A stretch of 64,000 bases of DNA, from the NCBI GenBank assembly GCA_034440575.1, contig JAOTOL010001648.1, positions 557,501 to 621,500 of the forward strand. The letters are read 5' to 3'. This stretch comes from Imbricaverruca yamaguchii. Its lineage: Eukaryota; Arthropoda; Thecostraca; Neoverrucidae. A program made the position numbers and the translations under genes. Shown here in pieces: positions 297-51,280 of the stretch (position 1 is the first letter of the stretch; every line of letters begins with the position of its first letter). Under the pieces are notes generated by a model, which saw nothing but the letters and a program-made list of their open reading frames with translations, had not been told where the DNA came from and did no database searches.

Positions 297-473
297 CACC
301 AGTTTGAGGACATCGTCGGCGACGTTCCTGGACGTGTTGCAGAGCGCACGTGCCGACGAGTGGGAGAAGATGACGGGTGCGCGCGTCACCCGCAGCGCGT
401 CCAGGGTGGTCTGGCGGCCCGTGTGGCTCAGGTCGACCATCATGCCGAGCCGGTTCATCTCCAGCACCACCGC
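297..473 (-). CDS. Dipeptidase exon 8: DLSH and FSHSS metal sites
   Basis: The acceptor GTGCTGTGACAG precedes GCG GTG GTG at 473 and the donor CTGGTG|GTCAGT lies at 297/296 (177 nt = 59 codons, phase 0 both ends). It encodes [20 protein letters not shown], then [20 protein letters not shown] and VADDVLKLV, the signature core of M19 dipeptidases. The His of DLSH and the His of FSHSS are metal ligands. Both borders of this exon are repeated in tandem arrays (121-296 and 474-1975). The next exon should begin like KQTDSLVMVNF and is off the window. Confidence 0.97.

Positions 474-51280: not shown

What the first reader, a model, noticed from the sequence alone, without database searches (positions are those of the whole stretch)
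297..51280. Exon-intron borders of one gene repeatedly turned into tandem arrays
At least four exons of the dipeptidase gene (1, 3, 4, 8), and probably exon 5, carry arrays whose unit spans the exon-intron border: coding end plus 5' splice site (exons 1, 3, 4, 8) or 3' splice site plus coding start (exons 8, 5). Exon 8 has them on both sides. Units differ in length and sequence between exons (60, 72-79, 64-76, 69, 73-77 bp), so the arrays arose independently. I know of no described system of splice-border minisatellites. Caveat: other arrays in the window (9.5, 34.6, 62.4 kb) are not at exons, and exons 2, 6 and 7 lack them. A null model is that minisatellites arise in GC-rich islands, which often are exons.
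Basis: partly seen in the sequence, partly recalled or inferred. Interest (0 to 1): 0.92.

Follow-up and report, generated by a model that had tools for sequence, protein, structure and literature searches.

The report
Splice-border minisatellites in barnacle dipeptidase gene
A barnacle gene carries several independent tandem-repeat arrays whose unit contains the end of an exon plus its splice site; such arrays ("mirages") were known from amphioxus, and finding them in an arthropod suggests the phenomenon is wider.

Summary
The window is barnacle DNA with a membrane-dipeptidase gene (PF01244) on the minus strand; eight modelled exons at 51280-297 join into one 1,056-nt open frame. Four arrays span splice borders of homology-supported exons: exon 3 donor (4 copies, 72-79 bp), exon 4 donor (9, 64-75 bp), exon 8 acceptor (22, 69 bp) and exon 8 donor (73 bp, three clear site copies). 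The array at exon 1's donor is real (60 bp), but exon 1 itself lacks homology support. Exon 5's acceptor sits in an eroded ~33-bp array that Tandem Repeats Finder does not detect. Units are unrelated, so the arrays arose independently. Five of 19 array loci straddle borders against 0.51 expected after GC matching, but this is one post hoc gene in a repeat-rich window, and some weaker tests are not significant. The claim that no such system is described is wrong: amphioxus "mirages" are this. Most likely the arrays are neutral minisatellites, tolerated because exon definition across large introns picks the innermost splice-site pair, nearly the only choice that keeps the frame outside the unsupported exon 1. 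Splicing, polymorphism and genome-wide enrichment could not be tested.

The parts
297..473 (-). Exon 8 of the dipeptidase ([17 protein letters not shown]...DDVLKLV); the gene must continue left of the window, since relatives do
   Evidence: tblastn with Amphibalanus/Pollicipes proteins; AG/GT and phase
143..320 (-). Exon 8 donor array, 73-bp unit made of two related halves; site copies with last exonic base 297 (gtcagt), 224 (gtgaga), 147 (gtgaac)
   Evidence: TRF; alignment; copies
456..1974 (-). Exon 8 acceptor array, 22 x 69 bp, all 22 copies carry AG|GCGGTGGTG or near-identical; only the exon-proximal copy keeps the frame
3883..3943 (-). Exon 7, no border array detected; homology support weak (E=5.6), phase fits
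4380..4530 (-). Exon 6, no border array detected
11285..11417 (-). Exon 5
11418..11690 (-). Eroded ~33-bp array at the exon 5 acceptor; nine CGGCAGTTCTG-like matches (up to 3 mismatches) counting the functional one, six of them with an AG
   Evidence: (0/300 shuffles reach the self-similarity); TRF does not detect it
14323..14479 (-). Exon 4 ([12 protein letters not shown]...GMVGAQ)
13726..14372 (-). Exon 4 donor array, 9 copies of 64-75 bp, coding end + CAG|gtcag
25926..26106 (-). Exon 3 (transmembrane segment...[10 protein letters not shown])
25667..25980 (-). Exon 3 donor array, 4 copies of 72-79 bp, coding end + GACGG|gtgagt
35588..35714 (-). Exon 2 ([17 protein letters not shown]...), no border array detected
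   Evidence: match to Pollicipes P0098; phase
51212..51280 (-). Putative exon 1 ([13 protein letters not shown]...GSAR), no homology support
50646..51247 (-). 60-bp array over the putative exon 1 donor; open in frame at 7 of 7 outer donors tested (8 outer copies exist)

Best explanation
These are 'mirage'-type minisatellites: short tandem duplications that happened to span an exon edge and then expanded outward into the intron, several times independently in one barnacle gene. They are probably neutral. The copy next to the exon still works, and in long introns the spliceosome pairs splice sites across the short exon (exon definition), so the innermost copy is used and the outer copies are treated as intron. 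Shown: repeat anatomy, retained GT/AG, independence of units, and that outer sites mostly destroy the frame. Inferred: actual splice choice, neutrality, and the duplication mechanism.
For: Innermost copies carry the sequence conserved in relatives and join in one open frame. Outer sites: 3/3 at exon 3 and 21/21 at exon 8 acceptor meet a stop, 6/8 at exon 4 give a stop or frameshift, and 5/5 outer AG-bearing motif copies at exon 5 meet a stop. Arrayed borders whose intron lies in the window flank introns of 2,905-15,497 bp, and the only short intron, 436 bp, has none. PMC9225289 (abstract, sections 6 and 9): with large flanking introns the sites closest across the exon are favoured. PMC3087553 (passages): amphioxus Adh3 and globin data suggest that mirages do not disturb regular splicing. 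No consistent excess conservation of exonic over intronic columns: only exon 3 differs (P=0.006), with the exonic side MORE variable, as expected if outer copies are unused. Ages differ (96% match at exon 8 acceptor to below TRF detection at exon 5), so the process recurs.
Against: No RNA evidence. Seven borders on long introns have no detected array, so intron length alone explains little. In PMC9225289 exon definition only reduces, not reverses, the upstream preference for 3' splice sites, yet exon 8 needs the last of 22 near-identical acceptors. At exon 4 two outer donors, and at putative exon 1 all seven tested, keep the frame, so use of some outer copies is not excluded. The excess over borders in the GC-matched simulation is more than a purely neutral, position-blind model predicts. 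Breakpoint microhomology is weak (Fisher P=0.008; exons 1 and 3 at 0.026, exon 8 acceptor 0.085, exon 8 donor 0.22, exon 4 0.54).
Confidence: 0.72

Rival explanations
1. GC-island null: minisatellites arise in any GC-rich stretch of this repeat-rich genome; exon edges are GC-rich, so some are hit, with no preference for borders. (Compatible with the best explanation; it denies only border preference.)
For: The window is full of arrays: 21% of 319 windows of 300 bp have self-similarity z>=6; base-level GC-rich backgrounds of 20-24% make 5/15 unremarkable. Arrays also lie away from the modelled exons (9.5, 20.5, 22.2, 34.6, 43.9, 57.6, 62.4 kb).
Against: Locus-based, GC-matched placement gives 0.51 expected vs 5 observed, 0.47 vs 4 without exon 1.
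Confidence: 0.4
2. Functional arrays: repeated splice sites are kept because they help recognise small exons in long introns (more U1/U2AF binding) or protect long introns from premature polyadenylation.
For: GT/AG retained in 43 of 44 copies of the four arrays examined; no array at the one short intron.
Against: Sites are kept no better than the rest of the unit: no consistent conservation difference; exon 5's old array has decayed, 3 of 9 motif copies lacking AG; most outer sites would cause stops or frameshifts if used.
Confidence: 0.08
3. Mutational targeting: splice-site motifs and exon edges themselves promote tandem duplication (microhomology, R-loops). (Compatible with neutral retention.)
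For: GC-matched excess; imperfect similarity of about 10-14 nt between breakpoint flanks at exons 1, 3 and 8 acceptor, combined P over five arrays 0.008; sense-strand G excess at the two exon 8 arrays (skew 0.36, 0.30).
Against: Nothing at exon 4 and exon 8 donor (P 0.54, 0.22); skew near zero at exons 1, 3, 4; the exon 1 similarity may simply be another degenerate unit.
Confidence: 0.3
4. Part of it is a mis-called gene: the exon 1 array is a coding or intergenic minisatellite, not a splice-border array.
For: No homolog of the exon 1 peptide; the array stays open in frame to the last donor tested, +534 nt, and a 311-aa stop-to-stop frame covers it.
Against: ATG, canonical donor and phase fit exon 2.
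Confidence: 0.4

Closest known systems
Amphioxus 'mirages' (Adh3, globins BflGb6/BflGb9, troponin C, PGBD5)
   Same: Minisatellite-like tandem units spanning an exon-intron border at 5' or 3' ends, unit lengths of 10 to ~160 bp, AG/GT kept in many copies (PMC3087553, PMC3902484, passages)
   Different: Arthropod instead of cephalochordate; four to six borders of one gene; splicing, length polymorphism and somatic instability unknown here. The founding paper (Canestro 2002) was not held; it is known here only through papers citing it.
Tandem duplication across an intron-exon border with intron gain (potato RdRp)
   Same: Duplicated segment crosses the border and carries splice signals (PMC4974935, abstract)
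   Different: There one duplication gave a new intron; here many-copy arrays, and no new intron is shown.
Variable internal tandem repeats in human segmental duplications
   Same: Minisatellites, some at exon-intron boundaries, that may create introns (PMC2812944, passages)
   Different: Primate-specific paralogs; half of those repeats are in coding sequence.

Membership tests
Mirages (splice-border minisatellites) | Tandem repeat whose unit contains an exon-intron border | tested here: met
   for exons 3, 4, 8; exon 5 eroded; exon 1 depends on an unproved exon
Mirages (splice-border minisatellites) | Both 5' and 3' borders can be affected | tested here: met
   Donors of 3, 4, 8 and acceptor of 8; acceptor of 5, eroded
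Mirages (splice-border minisatellites) | Regular splicing not disturbed | not testable with these tools
   No RNA data; innermost copies give the conserved frame
Mirages (splice-border minisatellites) | Copy-number instability between alleles or cells | not testable with these tools
   One sequence only
Mirages (splice-border minisatellites) | Homogenised inner copies, divergent edge copies | tested here: inconclusive
   Exon 8 acceptor copies are 91-100% identical to the innermost one, edges not clearly distinct
Intron gain by tandem duplication | A new intron position created by the duplication | not testable with these tools
   No relative's gene structure was available
Dispersed or transposon-borne satellite | Same unit at several loci | tested here: not met
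   No off-locus hits of five units and the 184-bp exon 5 stretch within the 64-kb window; the rest of the genome was not searched

The most novel reading that the evidence does not exclude
Barnacle genomes (and perhaps other repeat-rich marine invertebrates) have a general tendency for tandem duplications to start at exon edges, and exon definition lets these arrays grow unnoticed next to long introns, giving natural series of tens of near-identical competing splice sites and a standing source of new introns and exons.
Probability: 0.3. Interest if true: 0.65.

Novelty: new member of a known kind. Interest (0 to 1): 0.45.

Why it matters
If mirages recur in an arthropod they are not a cephalochordate oddity. 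Twenty-two near-identical acceptors beside one exon, and nine similar donors with the same GT beside another, are a natural test of how the spliceosome chooses among equal sites, and a plausible raw material for intron gain. Arrays of this kind may also be why the one Pollicipes protein examined (P0098) lacks exons 3 and 4 (inference, untested).

Tried and rejected
Base-level GC-rich backgrounds were judged circular because the arrays make up much of the GC-rich sequence; they are reported as non-significant. The region-level test is only P=0.07. The first event simulation used a hand list of 16 loci and left out three (13150-13250, 16040-16129, 47370-47424); one search repeats it with all 19 merged TRF loci of period >=25 (30 rows of 61; shorter-period rows, including 9.5, 34.6 and 62.4 kb, left out); results agree. 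A breakpoint-homology null that included arrays was replaced. A script with exon starts off by one was replaced. In one search the five outer exon 5 positions that I entered by hand do not fall right after an AG; one search replaces them with the true AG sites. Comparison of exonic and intronic columns gave no consistent sign of selection on outer copies; the split is approximate, since at exon 4 the first nine or so columns counted as exonic are intron-derived in outer copies. Rfam: 0 matches. R-loop skew as a general cause rejected: only two of five arrays are skewed. Paper searches: barnacle + minisatellite + splice, 0 papers; mirage, minisatellite and border terms, (one search listed 20 of 29 papers and 15 of 25; most were seen as titles and abstract starts only). 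The two barnacle genome papers looked into by term search show no mention of such arrays in the passages returned (PMC8416341; PMC8917513).

Full report
Identity. The minus-strand gene at 51280-297 encodes a membrane dipeptidase (exons 3-8: Pfam PF01244, 1.8e-74; dipeptidase structures such as 1itq). The two best of 120 listed protein hits are Amphibalanus amphitrite P0001 (76% over 98%) and P0002 (75% over 94%); Pollicipes pollicipes P0098, number 98 by E-value, is 81% over 64%. Exons 5 and 6 are 93-94% identical to Pollicipes and 75-90% to the two Amphibalanus proteins, while exon 8 is 83% to Pollicipes and 84% to P0002. So the source is a barnacle, perhaps nearer Pollicipes; the species is not established. 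The whole genome could not be reached.

Gene model. Eight exons (parts list) join into 1,056 nt with one open frame of 352 codons; all seven introns are GT-AG and the phases fit. Exons 3-6 and 8 are directly supported by tblastn; exon 7 by one weak match (E=5.6) plus phase; exon 2 by Pollicipes P0098. Exon 1 has no homology support: 69 candidates shared words with residues 1-70 and none scored E<=1. Intron lengths are 15497, 9481, 11446, 2905, 6754, 436 and 3409 bp; the first depends on exon 1, and the intron after exon 8 runs out of the window.

Arrays at borders. TRF lists 61 rows. Five arrays contain a modelled splice border. Exon 3 donor: 4 copies, spacing 79, 72, 79. Exon 4 donor: 9 copies, spacing 64-75. 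Exon 8 acceptor: 22 copies, all spaced 69. Exon 8 donor: a 73-bp unit of two related halves. Exon 1 donor: 9 anchors, mostly 60 apart with a disturbed stretch (90, 84). The splice dinucleotide is kept in 43 of 44 copies of four arrays (the exon 8 donor array was not in that count). The exon 5 acceptor region shows a 33-bp periodicity (33, 65-66, 99, 131, 165) and a self-similarity that none of 300 shuffles reaches, although the short segment around the border alone is not significant against the upstream intron (73 of 1000 shuffles), nor against the window. Three of its nine motif copies have lost the AG. Five units and the 184-bp exon 5 stretch show no hit elsewhere in the window at E<=0.01, and between arrays only matches of 8-21 nt with E of 0.045 or worse, so the arrays are independent.

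More than chance? Locus-based GC-matched placement gives 5 observed vs 0.51 expected over 15 borders, or 4 vs 0.47 over 14 without exon 1; seeds confined to very GC-rich sequence give P(>=4) of 0.006-0.007. Base-level tests are significant against the whole window (5/15 vs about 5%; 3/11 if the complexity filter is applied to borders too, P 0.013-0.015) but not against GC-rich sequence (P=0.18) or at region level (P=0.07). The gene was chosen because of the pattern, so these values are not genome-wide probabilities.

How it would work. Outer sites are mostly ruinous: exon 3, 3 of 3 outer donors meet a stop; exon 4, 6 of 8 give a stop or frameshift (copies at +75 and +348 stay open in frame); exon 8 acceptor, 21 of 21 meet a stop; at putative exon 1, 7 of 7 outer donors tested stay open; exon 5, 5 of 5 outer AG sites meet a stop. 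For the exon 8 donor copies the frame cannot be tested, since the next exon lies outside. So for exons 3, 5 and 8 (acceptor) normal protein needs the innermost copy. That choice is what exon definition predicts: with large flanking introns the sites closest across the exon are preferred (PMC9225289, abstract and sections 6 and 9 read). For 3' sites the paper reports only a reduced upstream preference, so the 22-acceptor array is the harder case. Arrayed borders with a measurable intron sit on introns of 2.9 kb or more and the 436-bp intron has none, but seven other long-intron borders have none either. Columns of exonic and intronic origin show no consistent difference in diversity, which fits unused outer copies.

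How the arrays may have started. Flanks of the two breakpoints share short imperfect similarity at exons 1, 3 and 8 acceptor; combined over five arrays P=0.008 against array-free GC-rich positions, but exon 4 and exon 8 donor show nothing. This is weak support for duplication by short homology followed by expansion.

Comparison. [quoted passage not shown] Adh3 data and globin RT-PCR suggested that regular splicing is not disturbed, and they were proposed as a route to new introns (PMC3087553, passages). PGBD5 and troponin C of lancelets are further cases (PMC3902484, passage). The Adh3 paper itself was not held. I found no barnacle or arthropod report in the searches, which cover open-licence PMC papers only and of whose hits most were seen only as listings. 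Verdict: a new member of a known kind in a new phylum, with unusually many affected borders in one gene.

Noticed in passing
36499-40030 (-): LINE-type retrotransposon (inside the first intron, if exon 1 is right): endonuclease, reverse transcriptase and RNase H domains in three separate open frames.
   Followed up: partly
43871-44291: GC-rich 58-bp array (GC 0.76); on the plus strand the unit repeats CAG followed mostly by GTGCGG, a donor-like motif, but no exon is known there.
   Followed up: no
14479-14323; proteins P0002, P0098: Annotated relatives break at the same places: Amphibalanus P0002 joins LIDG straight to RWSHTDL inside exon 4, next to where the array begins, and Pollicipes P0098 lacks exons 3 and 4. 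Arrays in those species could have misled gene prediction; untested.
   Followed up: partly
52603-54431 (+): Two long overlapping open frames (469 and 249 aa) without any Pfam match at E<=0.01, possibly a transposase-like gene (impression only).
   Followed up: no
62354-63715, 34568-35190, 9555-9938: Large short-unit arrays (9, 11 and 21 bp) away from the modelled exons.
   Followed up: no
4379-4150 (-): A degenerate duplication downstream of the exon 6 donor (z 3.7); by eye it does not include the border.
   Followed up: partly
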